A stretch of 19,514 nucleotides of DNA, taken from the NCBI GenBank assembly GCA_016190025.1, contig JACPRG010000112.1, positions 1-19,514 of the forward strand. Reading direction: 5' to 3'. Below, piece after piece: positions 3,138-14,480 of the stretch. Numbering within the stretch: position 1 is the first letter of the stretch; each line of letters opens with the position of its first letter. Source of the DNA: Candidatus Tectimicrobiota bacterium. Lineage in GTDB: Bacteria; UBA8248; JACPRG01. The notes under the pieces are model-generated. The model did no database searches. It saw nothing but the letters and a program-made list of their open reading frames with translations, and was not told the DNA's origin. Both the position numbers and the translations under genes were made by a program.

Positions 3138-4148
3138 TCAGTCGTACCCCAGCAGCTTCCGGGCCTTGGCGTAGTCGTCCGCGCTCATGACTTTCTTGAA
3201 TTGACCCCACAGGGCCTCGTTGGCCGTCTTGCCCCAGCGCCGCGCTTCCGCCGGAGAGAACTCGATGACCTTCATGCCGGCCTTTTTCATGGTTGCCAGC
3301 TGCGAGGTCTGGAATGCGGAAATCCATCCTTGAGACCAGATCTGAGTGACCCGTACGGCCTCCAGGATGACCTCCTGCAGATCCTTCGGCAGGCGGTTCC
3401 ACTTCGCCAGATTCATGTTGACGCCGGTTCCGTTCCTGTACAGAGGGTGAAGGATGATGAACTTCGACACCTCCTGCCAGCCGAAGTTGATAAATCCGTC
3501 ATAAACGGGCCAGGTGAAGCCTTCCACCGTGCCTCGCTCCAGAGCGAGATAGATTTCTCCGGGGGGCAGGGTGACCGGTTCGGCTCCCACCGCGGTCACG
3601 AAGAAGCGGGTCAGCGGCGGAACCCGGATCTTCATCCCCTTCAGGCCCGCAATGCTTCCCACCTTTTTCTGGGTGTACATGAAATGGTTGCCCATGCCCG
3701 GATCGCCTGAGGCGTGCCCCAGGTAGCGGACGCCCTTCTTTTCGTACATCTGGACCATGAAATTGAATAGATTGCTGCCGGGTCCTTTGTCGGGGATCTC
3801 ATAGGGGGACAGCTCGGTGATGTAGCCGCCGGGGATCACGCCCGCCCAGTAGTTCGGGGCGCCGAACCAGACATCAAACACGCCCCTCATCAGGGCCTCG
3901 GGCTGGTCAAACGTGGGGACGACCTCGGAGGCCCCCTTGTACTCGATGACCAGTTTCCCGCCGGCCCGCTTGTTGACCTCGTCCTTGAAGCGGATGCCCA
4001 CGTCGGCCGCAGGGGAGACACCCGGCGGCCATGCGCCGACCATGGTGAGCTTGATGGGCGCGGCGGAGACAGGTCCGGACTGGCCGGAGGTCAAGAAAAA
4101 GACCAGAAACGCGGAAAAGGCTAGACCCAACACTCCGCCTCTTTTCAT
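3138..4148 (-). CDS. dctP: TRAP transporter periplasmic solute-binding protein DctP
   Basis: 336 residues, family length. A Sec signal peptide occupies about residues 1-29 (MKRGG, then a hydrophobic LGLAFSAFLVFFL core, ending VSA-AP). The mature part starts KLTMVGAWPPG and shows DctP features: FKDEVNKRAGGKLVIEY, PEALMRGVFDVWFG, the GMKIRVPP segment with the arginine that binds the ligand carboxylate in this family, and GEIYLALERGTVEGF. It captures the substrate in the periplasm for DctQM. Shine-Dalgarno AGGAGGG sits 6 bases before the ATG. A strong promoter and a palindrome lie upstream, and a stem-loop lies downstream. The conserved arginine suggests an organic-acid-like ligand. I cannot name it. 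Confidence 0.95.
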   Translation of the reverse strand: MKRGGVLGLAFSAFLVFFLTSGQSGPVSAAPIKLTMVGAWPPGVSPAADVGIRFKDEVNKRAGGKLVIEYKGASEVVPTFDQPEALMRGVFDVWFGAPNYWAGVIPGGYITELSPYEIPDKGPGSNLFNFMVQMYEKKGVRYLGHASGDPGMGNHFMYTQKKVGSIAGLKGMKIRVPPLTRFFVTAVGAEPVTLPPGEIYLALERGTVEGFTWPVYDGFINFGWQEVSKFIILHPLYRNGTGVNMNLAKWNRLPKDLQEVILEAVRVTQIWSQGWISAFQTSQLATMKKAGMKVIEFSPAEARRWGKTANEALWGQFKKVMSADDYAKARKLLGYD

Positions 4149-7914: not shown

Positions 7915-8340
7915 CTACTTGGTCAGGCCGAGGGCCTTCGCGGCCCGGCGCAGGTCGGTCGCTTTCGCCCAGTGGATCCAGAAAATCGCGCCGAACCGGC
8001 CGCTTCCCGCGCACAGGGCCGTCACCGCGGTGACGTTGATGTTGGCCTTGCCGAGCTTCTCCAGGATGCCCGCCAGGACGCCGATGCGGTCGTCGCCCGT
8101 GACCAGAAACGCCTTCTTTTTCCGGCTGATCTTCAGCTTAGCTTTCCGGGCGGCCTTCAGAAAGGGCGCCGCGTCCTCGGGCACGAGGTCCACCTGGACG
8201 TGGCGCCGCTCGGGGAAGGCGTGGACGGCGAGAAGATTGACGCCCGCATCCCGGAAGACGGAGAGGAGTTTCCCTCCCTCGCCCGGTTTGTCGGGGGACT
8301 TCACGTAATAGTAGTCCACCGTTCGGATGGTCTCGGCCAT
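7915..8340 (-). CDS. Tandem ACT-domain protein
   Basis: 141 residues forming two ACT-like ligand-binding modules and no catalytic domain. The first, about residues 8-65, has YYYVKSPDKPGEGGKLLSVFRDAGVNLLAVHAF in the beta-alpha-beta order of ACT domains. The second, about 75-130, has FLVTGDDRIGVLAGILEKLGKANINVTAVTA. ACT pairs bind amino acids or similar small molecules and usually regulate enzymes or transcription. Start ATG at 8340 has AAGGAG 7 bases upstream; the upstream in-frame extension is proline/arginine-rich and not protein-like. It sits between a periplasmic binding-protein gene and a cyclase-family hydrolase gene, so a sensor role for that pathway is a reasonable guess. Confidence 0.85.
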   Translation of the reverse strand: MAETIRTVDYYYVKSPDKPGEGGKLLSVFRDAGVNLLAVHAFPERRHVQVDLVPEDAAPFLKAARKAKLKISRKKKAFLVTGDDRIGVLAGILEKLGKANINVTAVTALCAGSGRFGAIFWIHWAKATDLRRAAKALGLTK

Positions 8341-8443
8341 GGGTTTTCTCCTTCCTGGGGGCTCTCCTGGCGAGGCGGCGGCGGTTGTGTGGGGGGACGC
8401 GGAGTCGCTCGCGCCGCCGTCGGGGGGCTGCGTCTCACGTTCG

Positions 8444-8483
8444 CGGGGCGGCGGAGGGAGCCCCCGGCCCTTCCGCCGCCCCG
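8444..8483 (-). promoter_or_regulatory. Strong stem-loop just after the NMT1-type binding-protein gene
   Basis: A stem of about 15 pairs (8444-8458 with 8469-8483), including an uninterrupted GGGGCGGCGGA/TCCGCCGCCCC block and one G-U pair, with a 10-base loop. It starts 9 bases past the stop codon at 8493. There is no U-tract, so it more likely protects the 3' end of the upstream message, or acts as an inefficient terminator, than as a canonical terminator. Confidence 0.6.
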
Positions 8484-8492
8484 GCGGGCGCC

Positions 8493-9518
8493 TCACCGCT
8501 TGTTGAAGAACCGCAGCTCCTTCGGGAGCTTCTCCACGAACTCGTTGGTGTAGAGGTCCTCGGGCGCGACCTTCGTCTTCACCCCGGAGGACTCCAGCGT
8601 GATCTGGATGGTGCGGGCCATCTTTTCCCGGTCCATGTGCCCGACGCCGTTTTTGTCCGTGTTCGGGTCAAAGTAGTGCATGAAGTGAATGTCCAGCGCC
8701 TCGAGGGAATCGGCCCGGCTCTGCTCCGGATACCTCTTGAGGAACATGTCCACGGCCGCTTCGCGGTTCTTGAACCCCCAGTCCAGCGCCTTGTAGAAAG
8801 CCCGCATGAACCGTTGGATCATGTCTTTCCGCTTCGCGACGTTTTCGTCGGAGGCGACGAGGCCGTTGGTGTAGAGGTCGACCCCCTGATCGGCCCACAG
8901 GAGGCTGACGAGCCTCTTGCCCGCCTGTTTTGCGACCTTCGCGTACCGGGGACGGTTGCTGTGGAAATCGATCGTCACGTCCACGGCTCCCGCTCCCAGG
9001 CTGGGGGGCTTGACCCCGGCCTCCATGTAGAGGACCTGCACCTTGCTCATGTCGATCCCGTTGGCCTTCGCGAAGATCGGGAACATCAGGATGTCGGAGG
9101 AGGCCTTGGGGCCGCCCGTGATCTTCCTTCCCTCAAGGTCCTTGGGCGTCTTGATCCCCGTCTCGGCGAAATAGAAGAGGGTCTCCATGAACTTGGCCGT
9201 CTGCATCATGATCTCTTTCGCCTTGATGCCCTGGGCCCGGCCCAGGGCCGCCGGCCCGGCCCCCGCCGTTCCGATGTCGCACTCGCCCGTGCCGGTCCGT
9301 TTGTAGGAATCGCCCGAGCCGAACCCGCGCACGAAGTTCACGTCCAGCCCCTCGGCCTTAAAATTCCCCCGATCCATGCCCGCGGTGATGAAGGCGTCCT
9401 GTCCGTAGATGATCCAGGCGGCGCAGAATCTGACCTTGGTCGCGGCCAGGGCCTCGGGAGAAAGAAGCAACAGGGCCGCCCATGCGGCGCCCAGCACGAA
9501 CCCAGTCCACCGTTTCAT
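8493..9518 (-). CDS. ABC transporter substrate-binding protein, NMT1/SsuA-like
   Basis: 341 residues. A Sec signal peptide of about 25 residues (MKRW, hydrophobic core, PEALA-AT) leads to a periplasmic binding protein of the NMT1/THI5 and SsuA/TauA superfamily: DRGNFKAEGLDVNFV, GECDIGTAGAGPAAL, TPKDLEGRKITGG, VLYMEAGVKPPSLGAGAVDVTID. Members bind pyrimidines, taurine, sulfonates, nitrate or aromatic acids. The start ATG at 9518 has GGAGGG nine bases upstream. No permease or ATPase gene is adjacent, so it either uses a transporter encoded elsewhere or serves as a sensor. A TenA gene is nearby, but on the opposite strand; a thiamine-pyrimidine ligand is possible but not shown. Confidence 0.9.
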   Translation of the reverse strand: MKRWTGFVLGAAWAALLLLSPEALAATKVRFCAAWIIYGQDAFITAGMDRGNFKAEGLDVNFVRGFGSGDSYKRTGTGECDIGTAGAGPAALGRAQGIKAKEIMMQTAKFMETLFYFAETGIKTPKDLEGRKITGGPKASSDILMFPIFAKANGIDMSKVQVLYMEAGVKPPSLGAGAVDVTIDFHSNRPRYAKVAKQAGKRLVSLLWADQGVDLYTNGLVASDENVAKRKDMIQRFMRAFYKALDWGFKNREAAVDMFLKRYPEQSRADSLEALDIHFMHYFDPNTDKNGVGHMDREKMARTIQITLESSGVKTKVAPEDLYTNEFVEKLPKELRFFNKR

Positions 9519-9734: not shown

Positions 9735-10406
9735 CTACGAATCCCCCGGCCCTCTCTCCGCGAGGAGCTGGCGGATATAGGCTTCGGCGTAGGGGCTTTG
9801 CCAATTCCGGGGTCCGACGGCGAAGGCCGCGACCCGGCCGGACCGGTCGATGAGGAAGCTCTCCGGGTGTCCGGTGATGCGGTATGTCCGGCTCACGTCG
9901 CCCCTGGTGTCCAGAAGGGCCGGGAAGGTCCATCCCTTCTTCTTCATCGCCCGGGCGACCACTCCCTCGACCTCGCCCACGTTGACCGCGAAGATGGCCA
10001 AGTCCTTCCGCGAGCGGCGGTCTTCATAAAACTGCTGGATGGAGGGACCCTCCACCAGGCAGGTCTGTCACCAGGTAGTCCGGAAGGTGAGGAAAACCAC
10101 CCGGCCCCGGAGGTCCGAGAGGCGGACGGCTCCCCCGTTCAACGCGGGCAGGGCGAAATCCGGCGCCGGCTCTCGGGCCTTGGGGATGGAGAAGAAGACG
10201 CGATATCCCTCCTCCGTCCGCCGGAAATCCCACGCCTTTTGAAGCGCGCTCTTCCCGAAGAGCGCCAGCAGCAGGACGGTCGAGACGGAGAAGGCCGCGA
10301 CGATCCCCGCCCGTCGGATTTTTCCGGAAGCGGCGCCGGCGCCTTCCGGTTCGATCGCCGCCCTCCCCGGCGACGAAGACTGAAGTTTGGCCTCCCGCTG
10401 ACGCAT
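9735..10406 (-). CDS. TlpA/CcmG-like thioredoxin with selenocysteine (UxxC), UGA at 10068-10070
   Basis: A membrane-anchored periplasmic thiol-disulfide redoxin, 223 residues if the in-frame UGA is read as selenocysteine (residue 113). A helix at about 33-52 anchors it. The TlpA/AhpC-type fold follows: REPAPDFALPALNGG, VRLSDLRGRVVFLTF, the active site TTW-U-QTC, then TFPALLDTRGD and the cis-proline loop ITGHPESFLIDRSG. Family members have CxxC here; the UGA exactly replaces the first cysteine, and Cys116 remains. Reading stays open for 110 codons beyond, with family features, and the downstream part has no Shine-Dalgarno of its own. A SECIS-like hairpin follows directly. Start ATG 10406 has GGAGGG upstream and lies 5 bases after the preceding stop. 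As last gene after ccmF, ccmH and a ccmI-like gene, it probably supplies reductant for cytochrome c assembly. A nonsense mutation is the alternative. Confidence 0.85.
10035..10058 (-). promoter_or_regulatory. Bacterial SECIS-like hairpin after the UGA codon
   Basis: In the mRNA, starting 9 bases after the UGA, CUGG-UGGAGG pairs with CCUCCA-CCAG: 10 pairs, with a single bulged U (10039) and a GUC apical loop (10048-10046). The GGUC apex lies 18 bases after the UGA. As I recall, the fdhF SECIS of E. coli also has a GGUC apex at this distance and a bulged U, and these are what SelB recognises. Here the bulged U is on the 3' side of the stem, a difference from fdhF. Confidence 0.75.
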
Positions 10407-10411
10407 CTCCC

Positions 10412-10864
10412 TTATCCCTCCGTTTCCGCCAGTTCCGTTCCGCAGGACGGGCAGTATCGGGCCCCCGCAGGCGCCCGGCGGCCGCACCCGTGACAGAAGG
10501 GGGGTTGTTCCCTCCCGTCGAGACGGGCCTTTTCCCGGATCCCGCTGACCTCTCGTTCGATCTCCTCCAAGAGCGACGCCTCTCGCCCGTGTTCGCCCAT
10601 CTCCCGGTAGACAGCGAAAACGTCCTTCTCAAGCCGGCTGCGAAGGCCCCGGTGGTCTCTTGGGGAGAGCTTTCCCGTCTGAAGGTCGAAGTCCACGTCT
10701 TTGATGGCGTCGATCAACTCGGCTTTGCGCCCTTCCAGGCCGGGCCGCGCGCTCCCCTCGTCTTCGAAGGTCCCTTCCAGCGAATCGAGGTCCGGCCGGA
10801 ACACCGGCTTCGCCACCAAGCCGATCACTGCGGCGAGCATCAAAGCGCCCCACAAAAAAATCAT
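10412..10864 (-). CDS. CcmI-like cytochrome c biogenesis protein with C-terminal zinc ribbon
   Basis: 150 residues. An N-terminal membrane helix (MIFLWGALMLAAVIGLVAKPVF) is followed by the CcmI/CycH-type segment ELIDAIKDVDFDLQTGKLSPRDHRGLRSRLE, as in the N-terminal part of CcmI. Then comes a charged, coiled-coil-prone stretch, and last a zinc ribbon with two CxxC knuckles (CHGCG near 126 and CPSCG near 141). CcmI normally presents apocytochrome to the CcmF/H lyase and carries TPR repeats, which are absent here. The start at 10864 follows GGAGGAGG, just after the ccmH stop. It lies between ccmH and the selenoprotein gene, supporting a part in heme ligation. The zinc ribbon should lie on the side opposite to normal CcmI TPRs unless the topology differs. 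Confidence 0.82.
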   Translation of the reverse strand: MIFLWGALMLAAVIGLVAKPVFRPDLDSLEGTFEDEGSARPGLEGRKAELIDAIKDVDFDLQTGKLSPRDHRGLRSRLEKDVFAVYREMGEHGREASLLEEIEREVSGIREKARLDGREQPPFCHGCGRRAPAGARYCPSCGTELAETEG

Positions 10865-10874
10865 TGCCTCCTCC

Positions 10875-11363
10875 TCAATCCGACTCGGCCATCTCTCTTT
10901 CCAGCCGCTCGGCGAACGCCTTTTCCTCCATTTCGTCCGACCGGGCAGTCGGTGGAGCGGATTCTTCTGTCCCTTCCCCCGTGGAGGCCCTTTTCCACCT
11001 CCGGAGCATCGCGAGGATGCCGGCACCTCCCGCGACGATGGCGAAGAACGGGAGAATCCAGGCCGTCAGGTTGAAGCCCCGTTTGGTGGGAGCGGCCAGG
11101 ACCTTTTCCCCGTACTGCTCCACGAAGTAGGCCACGATGGCGTCCTTGTCCTTCCCCTGGCCGATCATCTCCACGATCAGCGCCTTGGCCGGGACCGCCC
11201 ACCCCTCCATCTCGCAGACGCTCAACACCTTTCCGCAGCCGCAGAGGCAGATGAGGTCGCGGGCGACCTCTTCCAGGGTCAAGGCCCACGGGCGTCCCGC
11301 CGTCCCGAAGAGCGTCAGGACGGCGAGGGTCGCCGCCCTCCAGGGTTTTCTCGCGCTACGCAT
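10875..11363 (-). CDS. ccmH: Cytochrome c maturation protein CcmH (CycL/NrfF type)
   Basis: 162 residues. A signal peptide of about 27 residues, the CcmH fold LTLEEVARDLICLCGC...LSVC, a helix-rich VPAKALIVEMIGQGKDKDAIVAYFVEQYGEKVLAAP, one membrane helix at about 97-117 and a charged cytoplasmic tail. CcmH keeps apocytochrome CxxCH cysteines reduced for heme attachment by CcmF. The classical LRCxxC motif is replaced by a cysteine-rich version with Cys39, Cys41, Cys43 and Cys50, a variant seen in deltaproteobacteria-like genomes. Its ATG overlaps the last 8 bases of ccmF, implying translational coupling. Confidence 0.93.
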   Translation of the reverse strand: MRSARKPWRAATLAVLTLFGTAGRPWALTLEEVARDLICLCGCGKVLSVCEMEGWAVPAKALIVEMIGQGKDKDAIVAYFVEQYGEKVLAAPTKRGFNLTAWILPFFAIVAGGAGILAMLRRWKRASTGEGTEESAPPTARSDEMEEKAFAERLEREMAESD

Positions 11364-13347
11364 GTCCCACCAATTCCGCTTGTCGGCGCCTGGGGCGGGC
11401 CGGCCTTGCGGGGGTTTTCCGGTCGGGCCACATGGCGATGAGGGTCCCTGCGGACAGCAGTCCCCCGCCGATCCAGATCCATATCACCAGGGGGTTGATG
11501 AGGACCTGAAAGGTGGCCGCTCCCTTCGGGTCCAGGGCGGCCAGGATGACGTAGAGGTCTTCTTTGAGCGTCGAGCGGATGGCCACCTCGGTCGTCGGCT
11601 GATCGGTCTTCCGGTGAAAATTCCGCTCCGGCTTGAGCAGCCCCAGCGGCGCCCCGCCCTGAAAGACGGCGAGCCTCGCCTCCGCCACGTCCATGTGGCC
11701 CTTGGGGTACCAGGCGAAATCCTGATAGGTCAGGGTGTAATCCCGGATGGTCATGGATTCCCCCTTGTTCAGGAACGCCTTCTTTTCCACCGTGAAGGCG
11801 CGCCCGGAGACGCCGACGAAGATCAGGAGCAAGCCGATGTGGATGATGTATCCGCCGTAGCGGCGCTTGTTTTTGGCCACGAGGGAGAGGAAGGCCCGGA
11901 CGTAGCCCGACTCGGTGGTCGCCGCGCGGGCCCGCGTCCCTCGGTGGAATTCGAGAAAGATGGTCGCCGCGACGAAGACGGAGAGGGTGAAGGAGACAAA
12001 GGCGTAGGGGTCTCTCACCCCCAGGAAGAAAATCCCGGGCGCCGCGGCTAGGCCGACGGCCGCGGGCAAAAGAAAGTTCTTCCGGAAGTTTTTGGAGGAG
12101 GCCTTCCGCCACGCGATGAGGGGACAGATCCCCGTCAGGAGCAGCAGAGCCAGGAAGATGGGGATGGTCACCCGGTTGTAGAAGGGAGGGCCCACGGTGA
12201 TCTTCACGCCCCGGACGGCCTCGGAGACGAGGGGGAAGACGGTGCCCCAGAACACCGCGAAGGCCGCCCCCACCAGCAACAGGTTGTTGAAGAGAAAGGA
12301 GCTCTCGCGGGAGAGCAGGGATTCTATCTCGTTGACGCTCCTCAGGCCGTCCATCCGGGAGAACAGCAGGGTCAGAGAGGCCGCCAGGACAACCGCCAGA
12401 AAGCTCAGAAAGACCGGCCCCACCGAGGACTGGGCGAAGGAGTGCACCGAGGAGAGGATGCCGCTTCGGGTCAGGAAGGTCCCGAAGACCGAGAGGGCGA
12501 AGGTGATGATGATCAGAGACATGTTCCAGACCTTGAGCATGCCCTTTTTCTCTTGGATCATCACGGAGTGCAGATAAGCCGTCCCCGTGAGCCAGGGCAT
12601 GAAGGAGGCGCTCTCCACCGGGTCCCACATCCAGTACCCGCCCCACCCCAGCTCCAGGTAGGCCCACTGGGCCCCGAAGAGGTTTCCCACGGCCAGAAAA
12701 AACCAGGAGAACAGCGTCCACCGCCGCGTGCTGCGGATCCAATCGGCGTCCAGGCGCCGGGTGATGAGCGCCGCCATGGCGAACGCGAAGGGGACGGTGA
12801 AACCGACGTACCCCAGGTACAGCGTCGGCGGGTGAAAGAACATGCCCGGGTTCTGAAGGAGCGGGTTCAGGCCCTGCCCGTCGGCGGGGGGGCTGCTCAG
12901 CACGCGGAACGGGTTCGCCAGGAAGAGGAGAACCGCCAGGAAGAACAGGACCACCCCCATCAGGACGGCCACCACCCAGGGCATGAGGACCCGGTTTTGA
13001 CGCCGGTTCTGATGCACCACCATCCAGGCGAACAGCGAGAGCATCCAGACCCAGAACAGGAGCGATCCGTCCTGGCCCGCGTAGAAAGCTGAAAGGGTAT
13101 AGGGCAGCGGCAGGTCCCGGCTCGAGTAGGAGGCCACGTAGGCGAGGCGGAAATCGCGGGCCCAGAAGGCGTAGATGAGCAGGATTGACGCGACGGTCAA
13201 AAGTCCGCCCACCGCCCACACGGCGCGCTCGCCGCTGCGGACCCAGGCGGCTTCCCTTTTCGCGGCCCCCCACAGGACCGTCACGCCCGCGTAGACGGAG
13301 ACGAGTAAGGAGAGAGCGATGGAAAAAGACCCCAGGGTCGGCAACAC
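11356..13347 (-). CDS. ccmF: Cytochrome c heme lyase subunit CcmF
   Basis: 663 residues, family length, with many membrane helices. CcmF transfers heme to apocytochrome c. The heme-handling WWD motif is clear: WGGYWMWDPVE at 235-245. Upstream is the family signature LNPLLQNPGMFFHPPTLYLGYVGF (about 160-183), and FYAGQDGSLLFWVWMLSL lies near 88-105. A periplasmic C-terminal part near 510-620 ends in a last helix and an arginine-rich tail. The start is GTG at 13347 with AAGGAG 7 bases upstream. It follows the second Rieske gene by about 90 bases and overlaps ccmH. CcmABCDE are not in the window, so the operon is a partial system I set. Confidence 0.96.
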   Translation of the reverse strand: MLPTLGSFSIALSLLVSVYAGVTVLWGAAKREAAWVRSGERAVWAVGGLLTVASILLIYAFWARDFRLAYVASYSSRDLPLPYTLSAFYAGQDGSLLFWVWMLSLFAWMVVHQNRRQNRVLMPWVVAVLMGVVLFFLAVLLFLANPFRVLSSPPADGQGLNPLLQNPGMFFHPPTLYLGYVGFTVPFAFAMAALITRRLDADWIRSTRRWTLFSWFFLAVGNLFGAQWAYLELGWGGYWMWDPVESASFMPWLTGTAYLHSVMIQEKKGMLKVWNMSLIIITFALSVFGTFLTRSGILSSVHSFAQSSVGPVFLSFLAVVLAASLTLLFSRMDGLRSVNEIESLLSRESSFLFNNLLLVGAAFAVFWGTVFPLVSEAVRGVKITVGPPFYNRVTIPIFLALLLLTGICPLIAWRKASSKNFRKNFLLPAAVGLAAAPGIFFLGVRDPYAFVSFTLSVFVAATIFLEFHRGTRARAATTESGYVRAFLSLVAKNKRRYGGYIIHIGLLLIFVGVSGRAFTVEKKAFLNKGESMTIRDYTLTYQDFAWYPKGHMDVAEARLAVFQGGAPLGLLKPERNFHRKTDQPTTEVAIRSTLKEDLYVILAALDPKGAATFQVLINPLVIWIWIGGGLLSAGTLIAMWPDRKTPARPARPRRRQAELVGHA

Positions 13348-13435: not shown

Positions 13436-13942
13436 TCAGGCCTGGAACGTTTCGTGCGGGCTGACCACCTCTCGCGCGTCCACGACGACGCGCCCGTCGG
13501 GCGACTTCGCGACCCGGTAGAAGTCAAGAGGCCGCGGCGCGGGGCCGGCCAAAACCCGCCCGTATCCGTCGAAGACGCTCCCGTGGCAGGGGCACCGGGA
13601 GCGCAGGACCTCGGGTGGCGCGCCGGGAGCCCCGACGAAGGGGCCGGTGACGCACCGCAGGTGCGTGCAAATGGCCGTGCACGCCCGGAAGCCGCCTTTC
13701 TCCCGGAAGAGGAAGACTTTCTGAGCCGCGAGAAAGGTGATCGACCCGACGGGATACTTGTCCGGCGAGTCCAGCTTGAAGACGTCCCCCCCTTCGTACA
13801 CTACGTTGGGAAAAAGGAAGCGGATGTTCGCCAAGCTCGGCCCGATGACCGAGACCAGGAGGGAGGTCCACCCCAGACCCAGGAGGAAACGGCGCCGGTG
13901 GGCCGATTCATCCGAGGAAACGGCGCTGGCGTGATCACGCAT
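13436..13942 (-). CDS. Rieske [2Fe-2S] protein (second copy)
   Basis: 168 residues: a short cytoplasmic N-terminus with RRR, a membrane helix at about 19-40, and a periplasmic Rieske domain. Both cluster boxes are intact, CTHLRC (Cys92, His94, Cys97) and CPCHGS (Cys117, Cys119, His120). Cys92, His94, Cys117 and His120 bind the cluster; Cys97 and Cys119 form the disulfide. Between them is a family-unusual GAPGAPPEVL insert. The arginine before Cys97 replaces the usual glycine (CTHLGC), which may change the potential. Shine-Dalgarno GGAGGAGGG lies 7 bases before the ATG. No cytochrome b gene is adjacent. Confidence 0.93.
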   Translation of the reverse strand: MRDHASAVSSDESAHRRRFLLGLGWTSLLVSVIGPSLANIRFLFPNVVYEGGDVFKLDSPDKYPVGSITFLAAQKVFLFREKGGFRACTAICTHLRCVTGPFVGAPGAPPEVLRSRCPCHGSVFDGYGRVLAGPAPRPLDFYRVAKSPDGRVVVDAREVVSPHETFQA

Positions 13943-14036: not shown

Positions 14037-14480
14037 TCAGGCCGTTCGTGAGACGTAAACCTTTCCCCCTTTCTCGGTCGCCACGTACGCGGGCAGAGGG
14101 CGCGGCGGCGGTCCGCCGATGTTCTTGCCGTACAGGTCGTAATGGCCGTTGTGGCAGGCGCACCAGATGTGCTCCAGGTCCGCCCGGTACTGGACGGTGC
14201 ACGCCAAATGGGTGCAGATGGCGCTGAAGGCCCGGAGCTCGCTCGAGGGTGTCCGGACCAGGATGGCCGGCTCGTTGCCGAACCGGAAGATCTTCGCTGA
14301 GCCGGGTTTCAGCTCACTCGCTTGGGCCGCCATGACCTCCGTGGCCCGCGCCTCGGCGTTTTTGGGCGGGCTGAGAAACCGGAGCACCGGGTAGAGCATC
14401 GTGACGAACATCGCGCCCACCCCGGTTCCCAGAAACCAGTTCAGGAACACGCGTCGGGTTTTTTCTGTGATCCACTTCAT
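14037..14480 (-). CDS. Rieske [2Fe-2S] protein (first copy)
   Basis: 147 residues like the Rieske subunit of bc1/b6f complexes: a membrane helix at about 11-36 and a periplasmic cluster domain with CTHLAC (Cys89, His91, Cys94) and CACHNGHYD (Cys107, Cys109, His110). This second box differs from the usual [17 protein letters not shown], the C-terminal proline loop of the family, follows. GAGGTGGG lies shortly before the ATG. This is the first gene of the minus-strand electron-transfer/Ccm cluster. A quinol-oxidising cytochrome b would be expected as partner but is absent from the window. Confidence 0.94.

What the first reader, a model, noticed from the sequence alone, without database searches (positions are those of the whole stretch)
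9735..10406. Selenocysteine TlpA/CcmG-like redoxin inside a cytochrome c maturation operon
The gene at 10406-9735 is cut by an in-frame UGA (10068-10070) exactly at the first cysteine of the CxxC site, giving TTW-U-QTC. Everything else fits one intact protein: 112 family-like residues before it, 110 after, the partner cysteine, a cis-Pro loop, and no ribosome site for the downstream half. It lies directly behind ccmF, ccmH and a ccmI-like gene, the position of CcmG/ResA. UxxC thioredoxin-like selenoproteins are known as a general class; a UxxC redoxin as the apparent apocytochrome reductant in a Ccm operon is, to my knowledge, not a well-described arrangement.
Basis: partly seen in the sequence, partly recalled or inferred. 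Interest (0 to 1): 0.92.

Follow-up and report, generated by a model that had tools for sequence, protein, structure and literature searches.

The report
Selenocysteine thiol reductase beside cytochrome-c genes
An uncultured bacterium appears to use the rare amino acid selenocysteine in a membrane-anchored protein that probably keeps cysteines reduced for building cytochrome c; the protein type is known, but its place in this assembly gene cluster seems to be new.

Summary
Window 10406-9735 (minus) is one 223-codon redoxin gene with an in-frame UGA (10070-10068) at the first cysteine of its active site (TTW-U-QTC). It does not look broken: 15 of 16 database hits to the downstream half are likewise downstream pieces. 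In 95 genomes of the phylum of a Rokubacteria relative, the matching motif with TGA occurs 68 times in 52 genomes, with TAA/TAG never. A hairpin fitting the bacterial SECIS model follows the UGA; 71 of 73 UGA genes, window included, pass its energy limit, against 1 of 11 cysteine genes. tRNA-Sec (79/95) and SelB (84/95) are common in that phylum; the window's own genome is not held. [quoted passage not shown] Its place behind ccmF-ccmH-ccmI, with no CcmG between ccmF and ccmH, supports a role as apocytochrome reductant, but this is inferred: it misses the curated CcmG cut-off, and outside the window only one UGA redoxin was seen in such a run. The papers searched link no selenoprotein with the Ccm system.

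The parts
9735..10406 (-). Sec-containing TlpA/ResA-type redoxin gene (223 aa, UxxC at 113-116), N-terminal membrane anchor
10068..10070 (-). in-frame UGA, Sec codon 113
   Evidence: same codon in relatives
10038..10056 (-). SECIS-like upper hairpin: 8-bp stem, GUC apical loop, 19 nt after the UGA; further pairs below it in the folded structure
10412..10864 (-). ccmI-like gene with C-terminal zinc ribbon (listed ORF 10412-11026; ATG at 10864 is the likelier start, my inference)
   Evidence: similar genes follow ccmH in relatives
10875..11363 (-). ccmH
   Evidence: Pfam CcmH 1e-19
11356..13347 (-). ccmF
   Evidence: CcmF_C 1.7e-61; closest relative 86%
13436..13942 (-). Rieske protein upstream of ccmF
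14037..14480 (-). second Rieske protein; the PetC anchor model matches below its cut-off
   Evidence: Rieske-ccmF neighbourhood also in relatives

Best explanation
The gene encodes a membrane-anchored, probably periplasmic thiol:disulfide reductase of the TlpA/ResA family whose attacking residue is selenocysteine (U113-Q-T-C116). UGA 113 is decoded by SelB/tRNA-Sec with the hairpin just downstream. Standing at the end of a ccmF-ccmH-ccmI run that lacks the usual Cys-type CcmG between ccmF and ccmH, it most likely takes CcmG's place: the selenolate attacks the disulfide of the apocytochrome CxxCH motif (or of CcmH), C116 resolves the selenenylsulfide, and a membrane electron donor re-reduces it. 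Shown by sequence: the UGA, its recurrence in relatives, the hairpin, the family, the gene position. Inferred: Sec insertion in this organism, the reductase chemistry, and the substrate. Sec alone I put at about 0.93; the number below is for the whole statement.
For: Sec: TGA motif 68 matches in 52/95 genomes, TAR motif 0/95. In the 30 best phylum matches to the protein, chosen without regard to the codon, the site is TGA in 19, TGC/TGT in 11, TAA/TAG in 0; in the larger set, mostly picked by the TGA motif, TGA 73, TGC/TGT 11, misaligned ACC 3, TAA/TAG 0 of 87. SECIS-model hairpin at <= -7.5 kcal/mol in 71/73 UGA genes vs 1/11 Cys genes; stem pairs 14:30, 16:28, 17:27 vary in type yet pair in 69/69 distinct sequences. 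tRNA-Sec 79/95, SelB 84/95. 15 of 16 hits to the downstream half are downstream pieces of 69-110 aa, 54-98% identical. Function: best solved relatives are a Geobacter protein, ResA and TlpA; E119 sits at C+3 like ResA E80 after C77. 5-nt gene spacing. 22 of the 30 ccmF loci looked at carry a Cys redoxin right behind ccmF, the window none there. G077 has ccmF, ccmH, one more gene and a UxxC redoxin in one run. The closest relative's CcmF and its redoxin piece both report a contig of 45,819 bases.
Against: The window's genome is not held, so selA/B/C/D could not be tested in it, nor is its phylum known. Of 70 fetched phylum UGA redoxins, only G077 showed ccmF and ccmH in the same run, though many contigs are short; G084 has UGA redoxins 3.5 and 4.6 kb from a ccm cluster with its own Cys CcmG, and G090 has one on the other strand. 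Three clusters with the closest CcmF also lack CcmG behind ccmF but have no redoxin found behind ccmI within about 4-5 kb, so the slot can be empty. The protein misses the CcmG/DsbE and ResA cut-offs. The window hairpin is only moderately unusual: 30 of 200 shuffles fold as well, 156 of 5000 synonymous recodings match it. Its tree placement with UGA sequences has 86/79 support, not strong. The TGA motif is not associated with detected tRNA-Sec across the 95 genomes (p = 1; nearly all have it), and 4 of 52 motif genomes show neither tRNA-Sec nor SelB over the cut-off.
Confidence: 0.6

Rival explanations
1. A genuine Sec TlpA-type reductase, but serving other clients (Sco/CuA assembly of cytochrome oxidase, or general periplasmic disulfide reduction); the ccm neighbourhood is incidental.
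For: Complexes of TlpA with ScoI and with oxidase subunit II are among the best structural matches (PDB titles). In L001 two UGA redoxins lie in a run with SCO-like genes (SCO naming by eye). Of 70 phylum UGA redoxins fetched, one had ccmF and ccmH nearby.
Against: In the window the gene is the last of a tight ccmF-ccmH-ccmI run with 5-nt spacing, and among the 18 window proteins scanned with Pfam none is a Sco or Cox protein.
Confidence: 0.3
2. A recently broken gene or sequencing error: UGA is a real stop and the downstream half is a relic.
For: No Sec machinery could be checked in this genome; public gene calls list the downstream half as an ORF of its own.
Against: A 98% and a 75% relative show the same separate downstream ORF with conserved sequence; the TGA:TAR ratio is 68:0; SECIS-type hairpin.
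Confidence: 0.04
3. Genome-wide UGA reassignment, or two separately translated half-proteins.
For: A GTG-started ORF exists 12 nt after the UGA.
Against: TGA terminates 10 of 17 window genes checked; no Shine-Dalgarno-like sequence before the GTG (by eye); a half without the first active-site residue would be inert (inference).
Confidence: 0.03

Closest known systems
Prx-like thiol:disulfide oxidoreductase selenoproteins (PF00578, UxxC; 'Prx-like 1' of the Global Ocean Sampling study)
   Same: Same Pfam domain and UxxC motif (passages of PMC13188914 and PMC2398784)
   Different: Catalogued without a pathway; the passages seen name no ccm context. Here the gene ends a ccmF-ccmH-ccmI run
ResA (Bacillus thiol-disulfide oxidoreductase; cytochrome c system II, recalled)
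   Different: Cys instead of Sec; below ResA's curated cut-off, 88.9 vs 170 bits; this locus has system I (ccm) genes
CcmG/DsbE (system I apocytochrome reductant)
   Different: 39.6 vs 123.15 bits cut-off; different tree branch from the three ccm-slot Cys redoxins sampled; lies behind ccmI, not between ccmF and ccmH
TlpA of Bradyrhizobium
   Different: Cys; solved in complex with ScoI and oxidase subunit II (PDB titles)

Membership tests
Bacterial selenoproteins | in-frame UGA at a conserved Cys site | tested here: met
Bacterial selenoproteins | SECIS hairpin fitting the published model (loop 3-9 nt, G in first two, 16-37 nt spacing, <= -7.5 kcal/mol) | tested here: met
   window: GUC loop, spacing 19, -10.7 for the isolated hairpin; criteria from PMC13188914 section 5; moderate against shuffles and synonymous recodings
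Bacterial selenoproteins | selA/selB/selC/selD in the same genome | not testable with these tools
   genome not held; tRNA-Sec 79/95 and SelB 84/95 in the phylum of relative G001
Bacterial selenoproteins | Sec shown in the protein | not testable with these tools
   needs 75Se or mass spectrometry
Prx-like thiol:disulfide oxidoreductase (PF00578, UxxC) | PF00578 domain over its cut-off with UxxC | tested here: met
   77.3 vs 26 bits, residues 79-194 spanning U113
CcmG/DsbE | TIGR00385 score over cut-off | tested here: not met
   39.6 vs 123.15 bits
CcmG/DsbE | encoded in a ccm cluster | tested here: met
CcmG/DsbE | reduces apocytochrome c or CcmH | not testable with these tools
   needs biochemistry
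ResA | NF002854 score over cut-off | tested here: not met
   88.9 vs 170 bits

The most novel reading that the evidence does not exclude
In an uncultivated lineage selenocysteine has replaced cysteine in the dedicated apocytochrome c reductase of the Ccm system, making heme attachment, and thus respiration, selenium-dependent.
Probability: 0.4. Interest if true: 0.65.

Novelty: new variant of a known kind. Interest (0 to 1): 0.45.

Why it matters
CcmG/ResA reductants work with cysteines; a Sec version would change attack rate, pKa and potential at the thiol step of cytochrome c maturation and tie respiratory chain assembly to selenium supply. It also gives a function hypothesis to a large, so far pathway-less class of UxxC redoxins, and shows that public gene calls list pieces of such genes as short ORFs.

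Tried and rejected
Rfam at gathering score and the tRNA search found nothing in the window. A scan of viral contigs found no relative. UGA reassignment was set aside on stop usage. The idea that the TGA motif would track with tRNA-Sec across genomes gave no signal, because nearly all genomes have it. A link of the ACT-domain gene with UGA redoxins was seen close by at two loci only and left open. CcmG membership was tested and not supported. Stop counts in the table are not all at this codon (for instance L056 and L057 have Cys there), so I did not use them as counts. The tree used 84 read-through rows and 40 of the 152 proteins. Literature, judged from listings except where passages are named: 'Rokubacteria'+'selenocysteine' 2 papers, 'selenoprotein'+'TlpA' 5, 'selenoprotein'+'Methylomirabilota' 2, 'selenoprotein'+'selenocysteine'+'cytochrome c biogenesis' 1, 'selenocysteine'+'CcmG' 4, 'Methylomirabilota'+'selenoproteins'+'groundwater' 1, three of {selenocysteine, ResA, thiol-disulfide, selenoprotein} 180 of which 15 listed, 'selenoprotein'+'apocytochrome' 5, 'selenoprotein'+'cytochrome c maturation' 6. 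None of the listed ones is presented there as describing a selenoprotein in a ccm operon.

Full report
On the minus strand, 10406-9735 reads MRQ...TTW-UGA-QTC...GDS*, 112 residues before and 110 after the UGA at 10070-10068. The product matches AhpC-TSA (77.3 bits), Redoxin and Thioredoxin_8 across the UGA. It begins 5 nt behind a ccmI-like gene that follows ccmH and ccmF; two Rieske genes lie upstream. TGA is the terminator of 10 of 17 window genes checked, so it is not a reassigned codon.

Relatives argue against a broken gene. A search with the downstream half gave 16 proteins; 15 are 69-110 aa pieces lacking the active-site motif, 54-98% identical, including a 98% copy on a 2,104-base contig and a 75% copy named from a Nitrospinota bacterium. 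Four of the 15 begin, as the window ORF does, a codon or two before EGPS, just behind the site; the other 11 begin at later start codons, so for those the cause of the cut is not seen, and no DNA of any was read. That search takes only lengths 58-185 aa, so the complementary full-length search matters: there the uninterrupted proteins listed (120 of 152) are at most 50% identical. The 75% piece and the closest CcmF (86%) both report a longest contig of 45,819 bases, so probably one contig; I could not read it.

The one genome scan found a Rokubacteria contig, L001, with two further redoxins bearing TGA exactly at this codon and one Cys homologue. Among the 30 best matches the codon is TGA in 19 and TGC/TGT in 11. 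The motif F[WR][TA]TW-TGA-xx-C occurs 68 times in 52 of 95 genomes; the same motif with TAA/TAG occurs in 0 of 95. The regions of all 68 were fetched. In that larger set, mostly chosen by the TGA motif, 87 aligned positions gave TGA 73 (window 1, L001 2, others 70), TGC 6, TGT 5 and ACC 3, the last being misalignments. tRNA-Sec exceeds its cut-off in 79 of 95 (named control genomes 5 of 14) and SelB in 84 of 95 (controls 2 of 14). Of the 52 motif genomes, 43 show tRNA-Sec, 46 SelB, 48 at least one and 4 neither; there is no statistical association with tRNA-Sec (p = 1) because nearly all have it. Whether the window belongs to this phylum is not known.

The SECIS model of PMC13188914 (section 5 read) was applied to isolated hairpins: 73 of 73 UGA genes have one that fits, 71 at -7.5 kcal/mol or lower, against 1 of 11 cysteine genes (a mixed set with distant members). 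In 69 distinct phylum sequences six stem pairs are formed in 69 of 69, three of them with several pair types; the pairs further down are not kept (36 and 0 of 69 at the next two). The register scores 458 of 552 paired cells, other registers tried 172-370. The window's hairpin (GUC loop, 19 nt after UGA, -10.7) sits in a register two bases further on. By itself it is modest: 30 of 200 shuffles fold as well as the 63-nt stretch, and 156 of 5000 synonymous recodings reach its energy.

What kind of protein: best solved relatives are a Geobacter thioredoxin-family protein and ResA; the model has mean pLDDT 85.4 and 92-98 in blocks 81-220. It misses the ResA and DsbE/CcmG cut-offs. In the tree of 124 sequences the window groups with eight UGA sequences (86/79), while the three redoxins sampled from between ccmF and ccmH lie on a separate, fully supported cysteine branch with two others. 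Of the 30 ccmF loci given out, 22 have a cysteine redoxin directly behind ccmF, none a UGA one; 5 have ccmH there with no redoxin found, and 3 are cut by contig ends. The three closest of CcmF with readable surroundings (G021, G002, G006) are among the 5, like the window; behind ccmI no redoxin was found in them within about 4-5 kb. Only G077 repeats ccmF, ccmH and a UxxC redoxin in one run, with one gene between. In G084 UGA redoxins lie 3.5 and 4.6 kb upstream of a ccm cluster that has its own cysteine CcmG, and in G090 one lies on the other strand, 3.5 kb away.

Reading: a Sec-containing ResA/TlpA-type reductase (about 0.93 for Sec) that probably serves cytochrome c maturation (about 0.6 for the whole statement). 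The main rival is another client such as Sco/CuA assembly.

Known ground: PMC13188914 (abstract, outline, section 5, part of the references and passages seen) lists UxxC selenoproteins with PF00578, cd02966 and PF08534, and reports a Methylomirabilota MAG predicted to hold 63 selenoprotein genes (citing Deng et al. 2026, not read; that Rokubacteria fall in Methylomirabilota is recalled). It and PMC9312934 also list c-type cytochromes that are themselves selenoproteins, which is a different thing. PMC2398784 (passages) counts 225 'Prx-like 1' UxxC proteins, and the word cytochrome does not occur in its text. PMC9312934 and PMC5029168 were seen in passages, PMC12013277 gave no passage for the terms; PMC2397514 (passages) likens SelP to TlpA/ResA. 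The searches listed no paper that puts a selenoprotein in a ccm operon; the library is open-licence PMC only.

Noticed in passing
L001:2529-2933 and 3366-3797: Two further UGA redoxins (TTT-U-PLC, GT-U-EMC) in a Rokubacteria contig, in a run with SCO-like and oxidase-assembly-like genes (named by eye).
   Followed up: partly
window 7915-8496; L047:4244-4654; L053:3818-4186: A gene with an ACT domain (57% identical to the window's) lies near the UGA redoxin on the same strand in two relatives, and one gene away in the window; reason unknown.
   Followed up: no
G001, G003, G027, G035, G036, G094: Two tRNA-Sec candidates over the cut-off in each of these genomes.
   Followed up: no
L055, L054: Two redoxins close together: two UGA forms in L055, one Cys and one UGA form in L054.
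   Followed up: no
window 10412-10864: The ccmI-like protein carries a C-terminal zinc ribbon of unknown role.
   Followed up: no
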